Below are positions 1 through 8,081 of a DNA stretch of 8,081 nucleotides, piece by piece. The position numbers and the translations under genes were made by a program. Where the stretch lies: the NCBI GenBank assembly GCA_002007315.1, contig LNZQ01000102.1, forward strand, positions 1-8,081. Direction: 5' to 3'. Numbering within the stretch: the first letter of the stretch is position 1; every line of letters starts with the position of its first letter. The notes under the pieces were generated by a model, which was not told the DNA's origin, did not search any database, and was given only the letters and a program-made list of their open reading frames with translations. Source of the stretch: Epulopiscium sp. Nele67-Bin004 (GTDB taxonomy: Bacteria; Bacillota_A; Clostridia; Lachnospirales; Cellulosilyticaceae).

Positions 1-640
1 TGGTAATGACTGGTGTTTGACCAGAAAAATCTGTTGAAGTCTTGAAATCATGCTGGTCTGAAATTAAAACTTGCCACATGCCAAATGCAGGCAGATTTTT
101 TATTTGTTATGTAAATTTTTACAGTCAGACACTCTTAGTTTAGGTTTAATTTTCCTCCTCTGCATTTCTCCTTCAAACAGGCAAACGCATTACTGAGGGG
201 GGCTCAGGGCTGTGCTGACTAAATCGAGCAGATTTTAAAAAAGCGTTGTGCATGTCTGTTGAAGCAAGTTTTTATCTTTTCACAGCAATTACCTTCAGCG
301 TGACTCTCCTCTCTTAACTCAGCTGTTATCTGCAGAAGTTACCTCATATTTGGCGTGATGCAGTCAGGAGTCTAGCTTGTTAAATTGTGCTGCCAATTGT
401 AAGCAGCTCTTAAAATATCTTCACTTCACAGCCAGAGTGCCAACAGCACAGTTGAAAGTAAATGTAGTCTGTTGCAGAAAGCACTAACTTTACACCATCC
501 GTTCATATAACGGAAATTTATGGATATTAAAACTAAATATCTAAACTCCCCTCTTCACACACGCAATTACCCCACTGTCACAGACAGTCTCTCTGTCCAG
601 TGCCCACAGGGATTAACAACGGTAAGACTCTCCTCTTGCT
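1..640. other. Left flank, probable vertebrate (fish) non-coding DNA
   Basis: No bacterial-type ORF, ribosome binding site or promoter is visible, and the composition (mixed, with T-rich runs and CTG/CAG words) differs from the AT-rich bacterial block. A pyrimidine tract ending in CTGTCCAG at 593-600 resembles a eukaryotic splice acceptor. The word ACGGTAAGAC at 619-628 resembles a splice donor. Together they could bound a tiny exon, but this is weak. The bacterial reading frame of Cas5c loses family resemblance at about 640, which places the junction at about 636-641. I see no gene in this stretch. The fish origin is inferred from style and from the right flank. Confidence 0.6.
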
Positions 641-754
641 TAAAGCTTCATATGTAGGTAATGATAATGTAGATTTTTCGCCCCCTATTTTAGTAACTGG
701 ATCAGTAAATAATGCATATCGTCCAGTCACTTTAAACACTATTTCGTTTTTCAT
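641..754 (-). CDS. cas5c: Cas5c N-terminal fragment (type I-C CRISPR), cut by the contig junction
   Basis: This is the first 38 codons of Cas5 of a type I-C CRISPR-Cas system. Cas5c (Cas5d) processes pre-crRNA in these systems, which lack Cas6, and then stays in the Cascade complex at the crRNA 5' handle. The segment [16 protein letters not shown] followed by [11 protein letters not shown] and PTYEAL is the conserved opening of the family, which normally continues with a KG(I/L) segment and runs to about 210-240 residues. After Leu at 641-643 the frame stays open but resembles no Cas5, because it has entered the foreign flank. The start is the ATG at 752-754, preceded by AAGGAGG at good spacing. 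An upstream in-frame ATG at 770-772 overlaps that ribosome binding site and is unlikely. The promoter at 804-831 lies directly upstream, and cas3 precedes it as in typical I-C operons. The cas8c, cas7, cas4, cas1 and cas2 genes and the array would lie beyond the junction. Confidence 0.85.
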
Positions 755-831
755 TACACTCCTCCTTGTCATTATTTGTAAGATATTAATTATTATGTAT
801 ATAATTATAACACATATTTAACAAATATCAA
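744..831 (-). promoter_or_regulatory. Sigma-A-type promoter and ribosome binding site of cas5c
   Basis: On the minus strand TTGATA (826-831) and TATAAT (804-809) are separated by 16 bases, a near-consensus housekeeping promoter. About 35 bases later AAGGAGG lies just before the Cas5c ATG. It is unusual for cas5 to have its own strong promoter, because in compact I-C operons cas3 and cas5 nearly touch. No experimental support is available; the call rests on consensus and spacing. Confidence 0.7.
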
Positions 832-892
832 CCTATTTCACAAATATTATTACAGAAAATTTATAAAAATATATCATTTTTGTAATAATTAT

Positions 893-937
893 AAGACTAC
901 ACCTCTTGTTTTGTAATATATAAAAAGATGTAGCCTT
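893..937 (-). terminator. Long hairpin after cas3, terminator-like but without a clear U tract
   Basis: The arms 893-907 and 923-937 pair over 15 positions on the minus strand, three of them G-U, around a 15-base AT-rich loop. The hairpin starts 13 bases after the cas3 stop codon. The following minus-strand bases are ATAATTATTAC and not a run of T, so it is not a canonical intrinsic terminator. It may terminate or stabilise the cas3 transcript. The G-U pairs favour function on the minus-strand RNA. Confidence 0.5.
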
Positions 938-949
938 AAAGATTAATTC

Positions 950-1465
950 CTAAAATATATTAATCTTTAATTTAGGAGTACTTGTTACTCCTTTAATATA
1001 GTGGTAATACTCCTCGCTTAATATATATATCCCATCTAGTTCATGTGGGATAAATCCCTTATTAATTAATAGTTCTTGATATAACGAATTAAATATATTA
1101 ACACTATATGATTGGAGTTTAGTAAGTGCATTATATTTTTCTTTAATATTAATATTGCTTAAGATAATATTAATCATTTCTTTTGCTTCGGAATTATATG
1201 GCACTAAAATAGTTTTTGTTTTTGACTCAATTACTTCAAATAACTTTCTAGCAGTTTCAAATTGGCATGTAAATAATAACTTATCTGGTGTTTGAACTCT
1301 TTTTAGGCGATTTCTATCATTTGATACTAAACCTAAAATGCTTTTTTCGTTACTACCATAATGTTCATCCACTTCTATTGGGTAATTCATTAATTTATTT
1401 ATATCCTCATCGCTATAATACATCTGAAAATATTTATTTATACTTACAGGTGACAATAAATCATT
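950..1465 (-). CDS. cas3: Cas3 C-terminal fragment (type I-C CRISPR helicase-nuclease), 5' part missing
   Basis: Cas3 is the HD nuclease-helicase recruited by Cascade to unwind and degrade target DNA. Only the last 172 codons or so remain, out of a usual 730-850. The visible part matches the tail of I-C Cas3: NDLLSPVSINKYFQ, then TILVPYNSEAKEMI, then LQSYSVNIFNSLYQELL, then the closing DGIYILSEEYYHY segment. HD and helicase motifs are absent. The frame is open from the mobile-element boundary at about 1465. A TTG at 1454-1456 could serve as a start, but it lies inside conserved sequence and has no clear ribosome binding site, so I treat this as a 5'-truncated gene. Cas5c follows on the same strand after 195 bases, which supports the assignment. 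The upstream neighbour is the IStron-like element, not the rest of cas3. Without its 5' part the product cannot work. Confidence 0.8.
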   Translation of the reverse strand, partial: NDLLSPVSINKYFQMYYSDEDINKLMNYPIEVDEHYGSNEKSILGLVSNDRNRLKRVQTPDKLLFTCQFETARKLFEVIESKTKTILVPYNSEAKEMINIILSNINIKEKYNALTKLQSYSVNIFNSLYQELLINKGFIPHELDGIYILSEEYYHYIKGVTSTPKLKINIF

Positions 1466-1570
1466 CTGAACCTCCCATCACTAAAGCGACAGGGTTCTTG
1501 GTCGATAGTCTCAACCGACTAAGTATAACCAAGTTATCCCCCTAGTCCCTACGGTTCTTATTATATGTTA
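1466..1570 (-). ncRNA. TnpB omega-RNA-like 3' end and IS605-type right end
   Basis: On the minus strand this segment holds nested hairpins: TTGGT...ACCAA enclosing TAGTC GGTTGA GACTA, then GAACC...GGTTC (1493-1497 with 1468-1472) enclosing GTCGC TTTA GTGAT. The words GACTATCGACCAAGAACCC and GGGAGGTTCA are typical of the right ends of IS605-family elements, where the RNA serves as the TnpB guide scaffold and the guide is the flanking DNA. Here the guide position would hold the first bases of the cas3 fragment, starting AATGATTTATTG. No TnpB is encoded in the window, so any guide activity would need one supplied in trans. The 5' limit of the RNA is not visible. Confidence 0.55.
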
Positions 1571-1610
1571 TATCGTTAAACTCCTTAGTCCTTCTTTGCG
1601 TAAGTTTGTA

Positions 1611-1660
1611 ATATAATTATCCATACTAATACTAAATATAATTATCCATACTAATACTAA
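1611..1660. repeat. Two tandem copies of a 25-bp AT-rich unit
   Basis: Bases 1611-1635 and 1636-1660 are identical copies of a unit that begins ATATAATTATCCATACTAAT. They lie in the AT-rich centre of the IStron-like element, between the intron core and the right end, where a tnpB gene would sit in a full-length copy. The repeat probably arose by slippage. With only two directly adjacent copies and no spacer it is not a CRISPR array. Confidence 0.85.
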
Positions 1661-1737
1661 TAGTAAAGGATTTTTTATAATTATTTATATAACATATGCT
1701 AAAAACCGTAAGTCTTTAATAATTTTGGAGGTTGTTG

Positions 1738-2173
1738 TTCAACGTAAAACGCTACTTTTACGCCAGTTCTCTTATGAACTTCTTATGCTTTCACATAAGC
1801 ACAGACTATATCTTCATCTTCACCATTACGTGTTAAGCGTCACCCACTTCCACTACCTATCGCTTGTAGTGTACTTCCCTCAAGAGGAATAGTCGTTGAA
1901 GTTTACCTTTCGGTCTTACCTGCTGATTGCCCATTATTTCAGTGTTTAGGATTTAACCTTGCACCATCTAACTAATTTTTTCTGCTTTCGCAACATTCAC
2001 ACCGTAACCGTTTAAGGTTATATGTTGTAGTTTAGTTAGCTTTAGGGGTTTCCAGCAATTCAAGTGATATTGCAACGGTCTAGCCGTTGTCTACGTATAC
2101 ATTTCTGTGTACGCTGACTAATTTTAGATTTACTTACTCACGACTAAAGTCACGAGTTTGCGTAAATCATTTA
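1738..2173 (-). ncRNA. Group I self-splicing intron core
   Basis: On the minus strand the four conserved core segments appear in order: P as AATTGCTGGAAACCCC (2045-2060), Q as AATCAGCAGGTAAG (1915-1928), R as TTCAACGACTATTC (1887-1900) and S as AAGATATAGTCTG (1802-1814). Expected pairings form: TGCTG with CAGCA for P4, TTGAA with TTCAA for P3, and GACTAT with ATAGTC for P7. Peripheral hairpins are also intact: 2073-2089 with 6 bp, 1782-1799 with 6 bp around a TTTCAC-type loop, and 1743-1762 with 7 bp. The 5' splice site is predicted after the T of TTGAT at 2174, the usual U before a group I intron. No homing endonuclease ORF is present. The core seems structurally complete; splicing activity is inferred. 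A group II intron is excluded because there is no domain V and no reverse transcriptase. Confidence 0.85.
2127..2168 (-). repeat. Left-end hairpin of the IStron-like element
   Basis: The inner stem CTCGTGAC/GTCGTGAG (2137-2144 with 2149-2156) closes a TTTA loop on the minus strand using one G-U and one U-G pair. The outer arms 2127-2133 and 2162-2168 pair perfectly over 7 bases. In IS200/IS605 elements subterminal hairpins are what the TnpA transposase recognises; in the intron RNA the same fold would be a P1/P2-region stem. The wobble pairs point to selection on RNA structure. Confidence 0.65.
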
Positions 2174-2911
2174 ATCAAGCTTAATTCTTAACATCTCGGC
2201 TAAATAACAAAAGTTAAACTCTCGCCTTTGATATTCGATTACCTCATTGCACAGCTCAAGCAAAAAATCATACTTTTGTTGGCTAATCAAATCCTGCTCA
2301 ATCTCACAAATTAGCTTTGGCAAAAATATTGATTTTACAACAGTGTCACTTCTACTATTTCGTAAATATTCTATCAACTCAAAATATAACGTTAGCCCAC
2401 TATGTTTATCAACTGCTTTAAGCTCCTTGGCATACTTCGCTATTAAATATATTTCAAAATAACTAAGCAACAACTCCGTCAGAGGAGCTTCGCCAAACTT
2501 TGGCACTGTTAACTGTATCACTTCTTTATATTGTCCAGCAGTTGACGTTGCTCCTGCTAGTTTTGCAAACTTAAAAAATTGTAAATAAACTTTATCTTTT
2601 AAGTTTGCTGTATTTTCATAAATCTCCAATAACTCCTGTGCTGTTTCAAACAATTCATCTTCTATACAATTAGCGATATTTAGTCTAAGCATCAGCAAGT
2701 TATATTCTTCGGCAAATAAGTATACCATAAACCCGAATTTTTCAACTTGTAGTCGTTGCAACACCGTGTCTATAATCGCTTTTTTTGGAGTTACTTCTCC
2801 ATTTGCAATTTTGCCAACTTCGTTGTAATACGATAAACCACTAGCAAGTTGGTATTTTGAAATGCCCCGTTCTTCCATTTTATGTTCGATATATTGTGTC
2901 AGTAAATCCAT
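2171..2911 (-). CDS. HTH/TPR-like transcriptional regulator, C-terminally truncated by the IStron-like element
   Basis: The 246-residue product begins with an Xre-type helix-turn-helix (about residues 14-45, ISKYQLASGLSYYNEVGKIANGE), followed by paired amphipathic helices to the end. This resembles the TPR-like sensor half of Rgg/PlcR-like regulators that are common in Lachnospiraceae and are usually some 400-450 residues long. Its last residues, YLAEMLRIKLD, stop in the middle of a helix, and in related proteins this position continues into further helices. The last sense codons contain TTGAT, and the TAA stop is the first three bases of the mobile element, so the gene has probably been interrupted. 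The start ATG at 2909-2911 is preceded by GGGGGT. It follows the beta-helix gene by 24 bases and is in the same operon. Ligand and target genes are unknown. Confidence 0.75.
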   Translation of the reverse strand: MDLLTQYIEHKMEERGISKYQLASGLSYYNEVGKIANGEVTPKKAIIDTVLQRLQVEKFGFMVYLFAEEYNLLMLRLNIANCIEDELFETAQELLEIYENTANLKDKVYLQFFKFAKLAGATSTAGQYKEVIQLTVPKFGEAPLTELLLSYFEIYLIAKYAKELKAVDKHSGLTLYFELIEYLRNSRSDTVVKSIFLPKLICEIEQDLISQQKYDFLLELCNEVIEYQRREFNFCYLAEMLRIKLD

Positions 2912-4548: not shown

Positions 4549-5817
4549 CTAGTTTGCTACTGCTCCATCTATAGGTGTTTCGATTGCTCCTTCTTGATGT
4601 GCAACAACCATAGTACAAACAGCATCACCTGTAATGTTAACTGCAGTACGGCTCATATCAAGAATACGGTCAATACCCATAATGATTCCGATACCTTCAA
4701 GTGGCAATCCAACTGATGCAAATACCATCGATAACGTTATAAGCCCAACCCCTGGAACGCCTGCTGTCCCGATTGATGCCATAGTGGCAGTGAAAATAAC
4801 TGTTAAATATTCCGTCATTCCAAGGTCAATCCCAAACGCTTGAGCGGTAAACATAACGGCAACCCCTTGCATAATTGCAGTACCGTCCATATTTATTGTC
4901 GCTCCAAGTGGAACTGTAAATGATGAAATACGTTTTGAAACACCCATTTTTTTGCTCAACGTATCAATTGAAAGTGGAATTGTTGCATTTGACGTTGCAG
5001 TTGAAAATGCAAATCCCATAACTGGTGCAAACTTTTTAAGGAAATCAATTGGGTTTTTGTGTGCAAACACTCTAAGAATACCCATATACACGACGAAACA
5101 TTGAATTGCTAGTGCAAATATTACCCCAAACATATATTTCAACATCGGTACAAACGCACTAAATCCAAGTTCAACAAACGTTTTAGCTATTAGGCAAAAC
5201 ACCCCAACAGGTGCAACCATCATAACTATGCTAGTCATTTCCATCATTATAGCGTTACATTGTTCGCAAATTTTTGCTACGCCTTCAACTTTTTCTCCAA
5301 GTTTGGCAAGCACAACGCCAACCATAAGAGCGAAGAAAATAATTTGCAACATAGTCCCTGATGCAAGTGACGATATAGGGTTTGTTGGGATAATATTTAA
5401 AAATGTGTTAACAACACTTTGAGATTCTGCAACTGTTGTTTCTGCAATCTCAACCGTTGACATATCAAGTCCAATCCCTGGTTGAAGTATACTCCCTACC
5501 GATAGTGCAATTGTTATAGCAATTGCTGTTGTAACCAAATAAAATCCAATAGTTTTTACGCCAACTTTTCCAAGCTTTTTCGTGTCCCCGATAGCCATTG
5601 ACCCACATATTAGTGAGAAAAACACCAACGGTACAACAAGCATTTGCATCGCACGTAAAAACCCGTTCCCAACAAAATAAAAAATTCCGTTAACTATAAA
5701 ATCATTTTTAAATGCACTATCTGGAACAAAATAATGCATCATAACTCCAGTTACTGCTCCAAGTAACAGTGCAATAAATATTTGGGTCGTTAGTCCTAAC
5801 TTTTTGTTATCTTCCAT
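4549..5817 (-). CDS. Dicarboxylate/amino acid:cation symporter (DAACS, SLC1 family; GltP/GltT/DctA-like)
   Basis: A full-length inner-membrane transporter of 422 residues that would couple Na+ or H+ entry to uptake of glutamate, aspartate or C4-dicarboxylates. Family hallmarks are all present: the HP1 segment FSTATSNATIPLS (271-283), the TM7 motif NMDGTA (309-314), the HP2 segment ASIGTAGVPG (347-356), and the TM8 motif DRILDMSRTAVNITGD (383-398). By comparison with GltPh, Asp387, Arg390, Thr391, Asn394 and Asp398 are the conserved binding residues. The TM8 Arg favours an acidic side chain as substrate, although neutral dicarboxylates cannot be excluded. The ATG at 5815-5817 has a GGGGGAA ribosome binding site. 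It is a single gene with its own terminator and a promoter about 280 bases upstream. It is intact, with normal length. The exact substrate cannot be told from sequence, so no gene symbol is given. Confidence 0.93.
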   Translation of the reverse strand: MEDNKKLGLTTQIFIALLLGAVTGVMMHYFVPDSAFKNDFIVNGIFYFVGNGFLRAMQMLVVPLVFFSLICGSMAIGDTKKLGKVGVKTIGFYLVTTAIAITIALSVGSILQPGIGLDMSTVEIAETTVAESQSVVNTFLNIIPTNPISSLASGTMLQIIFFALMVGVVLAKLGEKVEGVAKICEQCNAIMMEMTSIVMMVAPVGVFCLIAKTFVELGFSAFVPMLKYMFGVIFALAIQCFVVYMGILRVFAHKNPIDFLKKFAPVMGFAFSTATSNATIPLSIDTLSKKMGVSKRISSFTVPLGATINMDGTAIMQGVAVMFTAQAFGIDLGMTEYLTVIFTATMASIGTAGVPGVGLITLSMVFASVGLPLEGIGIIMGIDRILDMSRTAVNITGDAVCTMVVAHQEGAIETPIDGAVAN

Positions 5818-6204
5818 ACAAATTCCCCCTACTCAATATTATTTACATTGCATAATTATTCATAATAATATAAATATTCTCTAAGCTATATTGACATTTA
5901 TATGTTTATGAAATTCAATTATGCATGATTAGCAATATGTTTGTTACAATTTTACCTAGTCTGTGTGTGAATTTATTTACTAAAAAAGAAACTTTACTAT
6001 ATAAAAATTTCTTTTATTAGTTTTTTCTTACATATTGCATTGATTAAATGATAGCATATATTATACATTTATGCACCAACTTTTTATTGGTAATTATAGA
6101 TTTTATGACAACTCACATACAAAGTTTTATTAAAAATTTTTTCATAGTACAAATATAAGTAAATTTCCTCTATGATTTGTACTATTTTAGACATATTCGT
6201 CTAC
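5818..6204 (-). promoter_or_regulatory. 387-bp intergenic region with the symporter promoter and a long leader
   Basis: No ORF is present. On the minus strand TTGTAT (6117-6122) and TATAAT (6093-6098), with an 18-base spacer, form a plausible promoter. A second TATAAT at 6060-6065 has no good -35. Either would give a 5' leader of about 240-275 bases, very AT-rich, with a near-palindromic ATGCAT-centred word at about 5919-5932. I see no recognisable riboswitch or T-box. The right-hand part holds the hairpin listed separately. Confidence 0.5.
6144..6185 (-). terminator. Terminator-like hairpin after the permease gene
   Basis: Perfect 11-base arms ATAGTACAAAT (6144-6154) and ATTTGTACTAT (6175-6185) enclose a 20-base loop, starting about 20 bases after the permease stop. 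The following minus-strand bases are GAAAAAATTTTT, a short T run. The loop is long for an intrinsic terminator, so a regulatory stem is an alternative. Confidence 0.6.
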
Positions 6205-6385
6205 TTATAAAATAAATATAGCTACAGCTGTTGTTACAACAAGCCCCGATACAACAGGAACTATGTTGCGATGTGCAAGCTCGATAGGGCTTACCCCCGC
6301 AATTGATGACGCCGAAACGAGTGCCCACGGCATCAAACAACCCCCACCAACCCATACACTAGCAATTTGTCCCCATTGCCGTTGG
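6205..6385 (-). CDS. C-terminal end of an unidentified membrane permease, cut by the contig junction
   Basis: About 55 codons of bacterial-looking coding sequence end in TAA at 6205-6207. They encode GQIASVWVGGGCLMPWALV, then SPIELAHRN, then a hydrophobic helix PVVSGLVVTTAVAIFIL at the very end. The layout (Gly-rich re-entrant-like segment, short charged turn, last transmembrane helix) suits a secondary transporter of the ion-transporter type, but I cannot name the family. Upstream of about 6385 the frame runs into the right flank. A run of four C on the plus strand (6371-6374) may hide a one-base error: with one base less, the protein would read PTAMGQIASVW, a more natural sequence than RQWGQIASVW. 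The symporter gene follows on the same strand after a terminator-like hairpin. Confidence 0.6.
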
Positions 6386-6980
6386 AAACACACTGTTCTG
6401 CACCAGCCTGTCCTGCTACTCCAGGTAAGACACTGCTGCCTGCATCTTCTGCATTTCAAATAATTATTTTTCAACTTATGATTTGCTTAAAACTTCCGTT
6501 AGTTAAGGTTAATGAGGAAAATGTTCCGAGAGTTTGAGCATGAATACCTTGCAACATCTGCTCCACAGGTTCGAAGGATTTGAAACAGATGTCACATTGA
6601 TGCTTGCAATTACTTTTGTGTTGAATTCAGAAAAACCTCTTGGCAGCAGCTTGTGGAAACACTTCTAAAATAGCATTTTGCCATCATGTGACATTTAAAC
6701 TCTCCACTGAAACTCAGACAAATAAAATTATTTTAGGCTCAGCTTGTCTTTAAGACACTGAACCACTGCAGCTGTTCCTGAAGTGTGGTGCTTCCTTTAG
6801 TTGAAGGGGAGCCATTATCAACTGATCTGTGGGAAACTGAGGCGTCAGTGTGACATCAATAAGTACCAGCTTTATAGTCAGTTTATCTGTGGGAAAAGGT
6901 TTTGTCTTTAAATCAATCTCTATGTGGAAGTAAAAACACTTGTATACGTCATTAATGCTGTGGTGTGTATGCAGGTAGGA

Positions 6981-7005
6981 CTGAGTATAAGGTTTACATA
7001 CTCAG
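6981..7005. repeat. Short inverted repeat
   Basis: CTGAGTAT (6981-6988) and ATACTCAG (6998-7005) are perfect 8-base inverted arms around a 9-base centre. It lies in the probable vertebrate flank. It could be chance or part of a decayed transposon; no function is claimed. Confidence 0.5.
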
Positions 7006-7141
7006 TGGGATATTTTAAATTTGAAAAATGAACTGTTACCTCTGATGGACCAACTATGTTACTGTGACAGTCTTTGTTAATCACCTCAAACCTATAAATT
7101 TGTCTCTTACCTCCTGGCTGACAGAGTCACTGAAGCAGCAT

Positions 7142-7164
7142 GAGAGAAAGAAAGAAAGAGAAAG
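7142..7164. repeat. GAAA-type purine microsatellite
   Basis: An uninterrupted purine run made mostly of GAAA units on the plus strand. Such simple repeats are frequent in vertebrate genomes and rare in low-GC Firmicutes coding DNA, which supports a eukaryotic origin for this flank. Confidence 0.8.
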
Positions 7165-7938
7165 TAAACGTTTTGTCTAGAGCCGTAAGAACTGGATGAT
7201 TTCTATGTTAAAGGAAAACTAGCTGGACTAGTTAGAAACAATTATTAATTGTTTTAGTCTCTTTTTAAACAATTAGTCTCAATTTGAACAGTTTCTGGTT
7301 CCAGTTTCGTGAATGTAATGATTTTCTGCTTTTCTTTTTCATTCATGGTTCTTTAATTTTAAGTGTTTTGGTTTTAGACCGTTTCACCATTTCTGGACAT
7401 TTTGTAGAATATCAGTTCATCCTGTAAATAAGCAGCATAAGCATAATCAATGATTAAAATTTAAAGTGTTCAATAATTTGGAGCTATTTGTAGCAAGGAT
7501 ACTCTGTGCTTAATTAAGTCCATTTGTTCAGCATGTAATTGAACTTTCAGCTTTATATCATCTTTAAAATTTTTTGTGTAATTATCATTTTTACAGGTTT
7601 TTGTTTTTGCCATTTTTCCTTCTTGCTGTGTCTGGTGGGCCTGACCGAACTTTTGGGGGTGATGCAGACACCGATATCTGGGAGAAAGAAAATTCTGATA
7701 TCCAAAATCAAAATGTTCAAATTCTCCTAACAAAGATATGTAGTGGTGGCAGGATATCTCACATCTTAGCAGAACTTTGATCATGAAACACTTCACTTAT
7801 TTATCATTTAAAAACAAATCCCTTTGCTGGACAAACCATGTAATTACACCCAGGGAAAATTTGCGCCTCAGCTGACGAACACAGCCGAACTGATGCCTCT
7901 CAGAAAAGGGGATGGATGATTAAATATCAGAAGAACGA

Positions 7939-8081
7939 GCTCTGGAGCATACCATTCAAAAAATGTCTTCCTCATAGTCCGACAGTCAGAGTCTGTTTGA
8001 CTCTGAGGAAGACTTTTTTCTTGAAACGTCAGTCTTTTGCTCCAGAATAAATTGCCTTACTTTAACCATGTGCTCCAGAGC
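7939..8081. repeat. Nested inverted-repeat unit, probable 3' tail of a vertebrate interspersed repeat
   Basis: Three sets of inverted arms are nested. GCTCTGGAGCA (7939-7949) pairs with TGCTCCAGAGC (8071-8081). GTCTTCCTCA (7965-7974) pairs with TGAGGAAGAC (8004-8013). TCAGAGTC (7986-7993) pairs with GACTCTGA (7999-8006). The string TGAGGAAGAC followed by CTTGAAACGTCAG and then AATAAA (8046-8051) resembles the GAGGAAG...GAAACGT tail seen in many animal interspersed repeats. The outer arm ends exactly at the window edge, so the unit may continue. Confidence 0.6.

What the first reader, a model, noticed from the sequence alone, without database searches (positions are those of the whole stretch)
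1466..2173. Miniature IStron: a group I intron joined to IS605-type ends, with no transposase or TnpB
The minus strand carries P, Q, R and S group I core elements in order, an IS605-type right-end hairpin ending in GGTTCAG, and a start directly after TTGAT. IStrons (CdISt1 of C. difficile and relatives) are known hybrids of exactly these parts, but most described copies carry tnpA and/or tnpB. A 708-bp copy with a complete-looking ribozyme and both DNA ends, and no protein, would be a non-autonomous form that hides itself by splicing.
Basis: partly seen in the sequence, partly recalled or inferred. Interest (0 to 1): 0.85.

Follow-up and report, generated by a model that had tools for sequence, protein, structure and literature searches.

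The report
Protein-free mini IStron, Epulopiscium relative
A 708-base jumping piece of bacterial DNA has lost its protein genes but keeps its DNA ends, a guide-RNA-like end and a complete-looking self-splicing ribozyme; relatives in giant surgeonfish-gut bacteria sit inside housekeeping genes that read correctly again once the piece is taken out.

Summary
Window 1466-2173(-) is a group A (IS200/IS605-type) IStron without a protein gene: RF00028 match of 71.5 bits, insertion after TTGAT, end GGTTCAG, both ends homologous to CdISt1. It is an internal-deletion derivative of a tnpB IStron: beside the 1767-bp Epulopiscium copy it keeps the tnpB leader, about ten last TnpB codons and the omega-RNA-like right end. 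The host is an Epulopiscium-clade bacterium. Two corrections. Its flanks are parts of different genes, an HTH gene cut at codon 246 and a type I-C cas3: recombination or misassembly, so splicing of this copy cannot be judged. And it is not isolated: 22 other complete ORF-less IStrons were found, 13 of them in one Epulopiscium single-cell assembly that holds 35 intron-core motifs. Of 15 testable insertions 13 restore a frame exactly, among them uvrB, dnaB, fmt, cysK and metA. Splicing and trans-mobilisation are inferred. New variant of a known kind.

The parts
1466..2173 (-). ORF-less group A (IS605-type) IStron, 708 bp
2174..2178 (-). TTGAT target / last five bases of the 5' exon
   Evidence: sequence; same pentamer before CdISt1 copies
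2136..2157 (-). left-end subterminal hairpin (ACTCGTGAC TTTA GTCGTGAGT)
   Evidence: DNA fold of the first 47 bases with target, z -2.45; aligned to CdISt1
2114..2118 (-). internal guide sequence GTCAG, can pair with TTGAT with U.G at the 5' splice site
   Evidence: sequence; target/IGS table of relatives
1782..2161 (-). group I ribozyme core
   Evidence: RF00028, 71.5 bits
1687..1697 (-). 5' arm of the inverted repeat that flanks the ORF region (ATATGTTATAT)
1563..1573 (-). 3' arm of that inverted repeat (ATATAACATAT)
1611..1660 (-). 25-bp tandem duplication of the tnpB leader/start
   Evidence: sequence; alignment to the tnpB leader of L101
1568..1624 (-). 18-codon remnant frame MDNYITNLRKEGLRSLTI: start in the tnpB leader fused to the TnpB C-terminus (compare NILKEGLRCLTYI in L101)
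1466..1556 (-). right end: omega-RNA-like scaffold and terminal hairpin, ends GGTTCAG
   Evidence: 12-sequence alignment, 24 pairs, 12 with changes on both sides
2174..2911 (-). 5' flank: HTH-type gene (name by eye, no model hit) cut at codon 246; its two relatives are 601 and 611 codon frames
953..1465 (-). 3' flank: C-terminal part of Cas3, type I-C
   Evidence: PADLOC Cas3c E 1.7e-17, profile 883-999 of 1009
640..772 (-). start of cas5c, cut off at about 640

Best explanation
The 708-bp element is a non-autonomous group A IStron that arose when a tnpB-carrying IStron of an Epulopiscium-clade bacterium lost about 1.1 kb of tnpB by internal deletion. It kept what acts in cis. (1) DNA: TTGAT target, left-end hairpin and right end with TCAG, the substrate of an IS605-type TnpA in trans (inferred). 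(2) RNA: a group I ribozyme whose guide sequence GTCAG pairs with the TTGAT that the transposon itself selects, so each TTGAT insertion brings its own 5' splice site; splicing joins the T to the base after TCAG and the host frame reads through (frame restoration shown in relatives; the chemistry is inferred). (3) The right end still encodes an omega-RNA-like scaffold whose guide would be the 3' flank; with TnpB from another copy it could cut the emptied donor site and favour retention (inferred from published TnpB biology, recalled). In this contig the element joins the 5' part of one interrupted gene to the 3' part of another, by recombination between two copies or by misassembly at the repeat.
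For: CM match; both ends homologous to CdISt1; deletion scar against the 1767-bp TnpB copy L101; covarying right-end structure, 0 of 500 shuffles reach the covariation score; target and guide sequence agree in 42 of 43 elements with both read: TTGAT with GTCAG 25, NTTAT with GTAAG 15, ATTAC with GTAAG 2 (many of the 25 lie in one C. difficile genome, and the start rule admitted only these target types); 13 of 15 testable insertions other than the window restore the frame exactly; 9 of 10 joined peptides match family profiles through the junction; host clade; first 55 bases identical after a different 5' flank in G001, where the contig ends; the same kind of deletion at two places in Clostridium sp. 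DSM 8431.
Against: No second copy of this exact deletion was found. The TnpA genes seen in G001 (two whole, one cut by a contig end) lie in elements whose ends show no similarity to this one (the blast with a 50-base left end is not sensitive). The contig looks chimeric and its flank genes do not belong together, so the 708 bp could be a mosaic of two copies. Folded alone, the window's right end prefers another structure: of the consensus helices only the 3' hairpin appears in its minimum-energy fold, and one pair (columns 5/15) is broken in the window only. The right hairpin alone is weak as DNA (z -1.04). No splicing or transposition was observed.
Confidence: 0.9

Rival explanations
1. The short form is an assembly product: two tnpB-carrying copies were joined across their repeats, so no real 708-bp element exists.
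For: Flanks from two genes; similar wrong joins in Epulopiscium assemblies (L136: M32-peptidase-like 5' flank and uvrB 3' flank; L046: dacF-like 3' flank after an unrelated 5' flank; M32 and dacF named by eye); fish-like DNA at both contig ends (by eye).
Against: A join between two full copies should fall in shared sequence and keep tnpB; here a leader duplication and an in-frame 18-codon remnant mark a deletion, and ORF-less copies occur in other species, one on a complete P. larvae plasmid.
Confidence: 0.12
2. It is a remnant that no longer moves; the ribozyme persists only because the host gene needs it.
For: No TnpA with these ends seen in G001; other Epulopiscium copies have eroded DNA ends, e.g. 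L140, where the guide sequence follows the target almost at once.
Against: In the window the target, the left hairpin and the right end are all present, unlike the eroded copies.
Confidence: 0.35
3. It is a plain group I intron that happens to lie after TTGAT.
For: Full group I core.
Against: Both transposon ends align to CdISt1, and a tnpB remnant with the inverted repeat lies where IStrons carry their genes.
Confidence: 0.02

Closest known systems
CdISt1 of Clostridioides difficile (group A IStron)
   Same: TTGAT target, TCAG end, group I core, left and right ends
   Different: In Table 1 of PMC4227781 each CdISt1 form carries ORF A and/or ORF B, at least truncated; here only about ten C-terminal TnpB codons remain
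ORF-less BcISt1 of emetic Bacillus cereus (group B IStron)
   Same: IStron without any ORF that keeps the inverted-repeat stem-loop (PMC4227781)
   Different: IS607-type, GG-ending target, CGG end; five strains, orthologous loci, vertical inheritance
IStron of Epulopiscium sp. Nuni2H_MBin001, G001:C18 (L101)
   Same: closest relative found, 84% identity over element positions 1-538, same target and end
   Different: 1767 bp with a TnpB frame
ORF-less IStrons of Clostridium sp. DSM 8431 and of Paenibacillus larvae plasmid NZ_CP019656
   Same: internal deletions beside a tnpB-carrying copy in the same genome or plasmid
   Different: the P. larvae copy keeps only the last ~25 bases of the right end, so no omega-RNA-like part; both DSM 8431 copies are cut at their 5' side by contig ends
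Thiomargarita nelsonii dsrA 'MITEtron' (PMC4853749, passages seen)
   Same: protein-free mobile ends plus a group I intron inside a core gene of a giant bacterium
   Different: a MITE that the authors liken to IS630, not IS605-type ends
TnpB-bearing IStrons studied by experiment in 2023-24 (recalled, paper not held here, nothing seen)
   Same: intron and guide RNA in one transcript
   Different: carry tnpB; whether that work describes protein-free forms I could not check

Membership tests
Group A IStron (Tourasse et al. 2014) | group I intron component | tested here: met
   RF00028 71.5 bits, full model
Group A IStron (Tourasse et al. 2014) | intron subclass IA2 with P7.1/P7.2 and P9.0-P9.2 | not tested
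   expected from 80% identity to CdISt1; helices not drawn one by one
Group A IStron (Tourasse et al. 2014) | inserted after TTGAT, ATTAT or TTTAT | tested here: met
   TTGAT at 2174-2178
Group A IStron (Tourasse et al. 2014) | 3' terminus TCAG | tested here: met
   GGTTCAG at 1466-1472
Group A IStron (Tourasse et al. 2014) | subterminal palindromes of IS200/IS605 type at both ends | tested here: met
   left hairpin z -2.45; right hairpin weak alone as DNA (z -1.04) but conserved with changes on both sides in 3 of its 8 pairs
Group A IStron (Tourasse et al. 2014) | inverted-repeat stem enclosing the ORF region | tested here: met
   11-bp perfect repeat at 1687-1697 / 1563-1573
Group A IStron (Tourasse et al. 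2014) | IS component with ORF A and/or ORF B | tested here: not met
   no such ORF; tnpB leader and about ten last codons only. The source counts ORF-less BcISt1 copies as IStrons, so I call this a deletion derivative
Group A IStron (Tourasse et al. 2014) | self-splicing restores the host transcript | not testable with these tools
   own flanks are from two genes; frame restored in 13 of 15 other testable insertions
MITE/PATE-like non-autonomous element | both ends, no ORF, same form at several sites | tested here: inconclusive
   ends and lack of ORF met; this deletion seen once; two interrupted genes in one contig hint at two insertions

The most novel reading that the evidence does not exclude
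Protein-free IStrons have colonised Epulopiscium-clade genomes as true protein-gene introns: one single-cell assembly (SCG-D08, 2.2 Mb) holds 35 IStron-type intron-core motifs and at least 13 complete ORF-less copies, some in genes such as uvrB, fmt, metA and cysK. The copies form a gradient from elements with all transposon ends (this window) to ones that have lost the DNA hairpins but keep the guide sequence and the 3' splice site, so the series shows a mobile IS605-type element turning into fixed introns.
Probability: 0.55. Interest if true: 0.78.

Novelty: new variant of a known kind. Interest (0 to 1): 0.62.

Why it matters
The 2014 IStron survey started from genes of mobility functions (PMC4227781), so protein-free copies are easily missed. 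If these copies splice, a giant bacterium carries dozens of self-splicing introns in or between protein genes, and the agreement of target and guide sequence (TTGAT with GTCAG, NTTAT with GTAAG) explains how a transposon can insert at many sites and still be removed from the RNA. The graded loss of transposon parts gives a testable path from mobile element to resident intron.

Tried and rejected
Size-matched exact pattern for this mini form in genome contigs and viral contigs: 0 matches each. Exact left-end and right-end strings in viral contigs: 0 each. HTH protein against 5.8 billion proteins: only itself. Cas3 fragment in 24 family genomes: no match, which by the tool's own note shows little; Pfam two matches below cut-off, NCBIfam none, PDB none; PADLOC gave Cas3c. 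TnpA elements of G001 as partners: ends not similar. The idea that the in-frame join of the HTH and Cas3 frames means one gene: rejected, since the HTH relatives run on for about 350 other residues. Weak Ref70 match at 1455-1560 (24.1 bits, cut-off 115): not used. Paper search for Epulonipiscium or intron: 5 of 137,083 papers listed, none holding the name; uninformative.

Choices made after looking: the boundary of the ATTAC class (L137, L173) was moved by three bases after the first join of the dnaB copy left a stop codon; the threshold of 40 codons on both sides was mine; only the sense strand was scored; the end rule missed elements, the window too, and was changed; the end of L020 was set by hand. 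38 of 68 intron cores could not be given both ends, many because the contig or locus ends there, and were dropped; 7 of the 22 ORF-less elements other than the window had too little open frame to test.

Full report
What is there. On the minus strand, window 1466-2173 is bounded by TTGAT|TAAATG and GGTTCAG|AATGAT. Rfam's group I intron model matches 1782-2161(-) over its full length with 71.5 bits against a cut-off of 50. Blastn against CdISt1-type copies gives 80% identity over 518 columns at the 5' side, from the TTGAT on (plasmid CP103805; 79.5% over 528 for phage CP067352), and 70-71% over 123-127 columns at the 3' end, through GGTTCAG. Between them the plasmid copy has a 1110-bp tnpB; the window has about 115 bp between the inverted-repeat arms and no ATG frame above 35 aa.

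How it became small. The nearest relative found is a 1767-bp IStron in Epulopiscium sp. Nuni2H_MBin001 (L101, 84% over element positions 1-538), with a TnpB frame 57.5% identical to CdISt1 TnpB. Aligned to it, the window keeps the tnpB leader (25-bp tandem duplication, 1611-1660), then a short frame MDNYITNLRKEGLRSLTI whose end matches the TnpB C-terminus NILKEGLRCLTYI, then the right end. The 11-bp inverted repeat that in group A IStrons encloses the ORF region is perfect in the window. So this is an internal deletion inside tnpB.

The right end. Twelve right ends (window, CdISt1, Epulopiscium, Clostridium and relatives, two viral contigs) share a consensus fold of 24 pairs; 12 pairs have at least one sequence changed on both sides; 94.8% of cells pair, and 0 of 500 shuffles reach the covariation score, though 95 of 500 reach the number of pair types. 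Against it: the window's sequence folded alone prefers another structure and shows of the consensus only the 3' hairpin, and one pair is broken in the window alone. That this is the omega-RNA scaffold of TnpB follows from its place at the 3' end of tnpB in the full copies and from recalled knowledge of IS605 elements, not from a test here.

Host. A pattern scan of genome contigs with a conserved IStron motif returned 40 loci: 23 in C. difficile (21 of them in strain CD160), 14 in three Epulopiscium assemblies, 1 in Clostridium sp. DSM 8431 and 2 in uncultured Clostridia. The window's dicarboxylate symporter is 81% identical to that of Nuni2H_MBin001, the best among 24 genomes of the family. 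Both outer ends of the window (about 1-630 and 6400-8081) look like fish DNA by eye; no call tested this. Epulopiscium lives in surgeonfish guts (PMC4789555, abstract in the listing and one passage).

The flanks do not match. The 3' flank is the C-terminus of a type I-C Cas3 (PADLOC E 1.7e-17, profile 883-999 of 1009), followed by the start of cas5c. The 5' flank is an HTH-type frame of 246 codons; its two relatives (both in G019) lie in frames of 601 and 611 codons and align up to residue 245, the insertion point. The frame happens to run through the join (254 + 171 codons), but the two halves are different genes. Either two copies recombined or the assembler joined them. Similar wrong joins are seen in Epulopiscium assemblies: L136 (M32-peptidase-like 5' flank, uvrB 3' flank), L046 (dacF-like 3' flank after an unrelated 5' flank) and probably L020 (CARDB-like, shikimate-kinase-like); names by eye except uvrB. 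Read positively, the window shows two IStron insertions in protein genes.

Other protein-free IStrons. Among 68 distinct intron cores in the loci held, 30 elements had both ends defined, and 23 of these had no ORF of 100 aa: 13 in G002 (Epulopiscium SCG-D08), 4 in G003 (SCG-B11), 2 in G016, 1 each in G014, G015, a P. larvae plasmid and the window; sizes 453-1163 bp. A strict core motif occurs at 35 places in G002, 5 in G003, 3 in G001 and 0 in G014, G015 and G016; the reversed-pattern control is 0 in all six. G002 is a single-cell amplified assembly, so some places may be redundant. In Clostridium sp. DSM 8431 nearly the same ORF-less junction is followed by two different 3' flanks (both copies cut at the 5' side by contig ends), with a tnpB-carrying copy in the same genome. 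In P. larvae a 519-bp copy is 97.8% identical over 502 columns to the tnpB-carrying copy on the same plasmid and then jumps to its last 25 bases.

Frame restoration. Of the 22 ORF-less elements besides the window, 15 have at least 40 open sense codons on both sides in one of the three joins; 13 of 15 are in frame with the exact join, 1 with one base and 1 with two bases dropped (with equal chance for the three offsets, 13 or more of 15 has probability 3e-5). The two exceptions are L046 and L136, the flank mismatches above. One of the 13 (L137, dnaB) needed its boundary moved by three bases after the first look. Ten joined peptides of about 130 residues per side or less were scanned; nine match NCBIfam models with one continuous best stretch across the junction: fmt, DnaB, sulfite reductase C, CysK, HscA/DnaK, PRK06835 ATPase, UvrB, MetA, RbsR-like regulator. 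Only PRK06835 passes the full-length cut-off, as expected for pieces; the tenth peptide had no match. For sulfite reductase C, DnaB (TIGR00665) and CysK (TIGR01139) the matched residues and profile positions are equal in number, so there is no net gain or loss.

Guide sequence and target. For 43 elements both the five bases before the element and the guide pentamer were read. 42 agree: TTGAT with GTCAG (25, many from one C. difficile genome), NTTAT with GTAAG (15), ATTAC with GTAAG (2); in 9 of these the outermost base does not pair. One (L023, GGAAA) does not fit and was not followed up; 18 of 61 lacked one or both readings. The start rule admitted only starts after these target types, while the guide was read independently. 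The transposon's target and the ribozyme's guide thus change together.

Mechanism. Shown: anatomy, deletion origin, conserved right-end structure across relatives, frame restoration in relatives. Inferred: self-splicing, movement by TnpA in trans, guide use by TnpB in trans. No TnpA with matching ends was found in G001, so trans-mobilisation is the weakest step.

What is known. From Tourasse et al. 2014 I read sections 14-16 and passages of others: it defines groups A and B, gives sizes from 482 nt, reports ORF-less group B BcISt1, and screened upstream of mobility genes. Its Table 1 lists no ORF-less group A form. Searches for IStron (43 papers, 40 listed), IStron with TnpB (2), TnpB with group I intron, guide RNA and IS605 since 2021 (4), Epulopiscium with intron (11) and IS605 with non-autonomous and group I intron (3) showed no title or abstract start on IStrons of Epulopiscium; most subscription journals and all bioRxiv preprints outside PMC are missing. 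A protein-free 'MITEtron' in dsrA of Thiomargarita is a parallel (PMC4853749, passages).

Verdict. A real, complete-looking, protein-free group A IStron; new variant of a known kind. The wider finding, many such elements whose removal restores housekeeping genes in Epulopiscium-clade bacteria, deserves more interest than the single copy.

Noticed in passing
window 1-~630 and ~6400-8081: Sequence that looks like fish DNA by eye on both sides of the bacterial part; the contig seems chimeric.
   Followed up: no
L084 (G001:C10:12000-13322), left end at 1034, right end from 1238: Short element after TTGAT with similar left and right ends but no intron: a PATE/MITE-like relative in Epulopiscium Nuni2H_MBin001; the contig ends inside its right end.
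   Followed up: partly
L140 (G002:C53), 713-1199 of the reverse strand: IStron-derived intron that has lost its left-end hairpin: the guide sequence follows the TTGAT target almost directly; a LacI-type gene is restored by the join.
   Followed up: partly
L145 (G002) and L166 (G003): ORF-less IStrons at the same place of two similar proteins in two Epulopiscium genomes, which suggests inheritance in place.
   Followed up: no
window 640-1465 minus: Piece of a type I-C CRISPR operon (cas3 C-terminus, cas5c start) next to the IStron end.
   Followed up: partly
L048 (G001:C17), 5059-6944: TTTAT-type IStron with a 417-aa frame not similar to CdISt1 TnpB by tblastn, although a Cas12f1-like/TnpB domain (PF07282) was found at G001:C17:6555-6785.
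   Followed up: no
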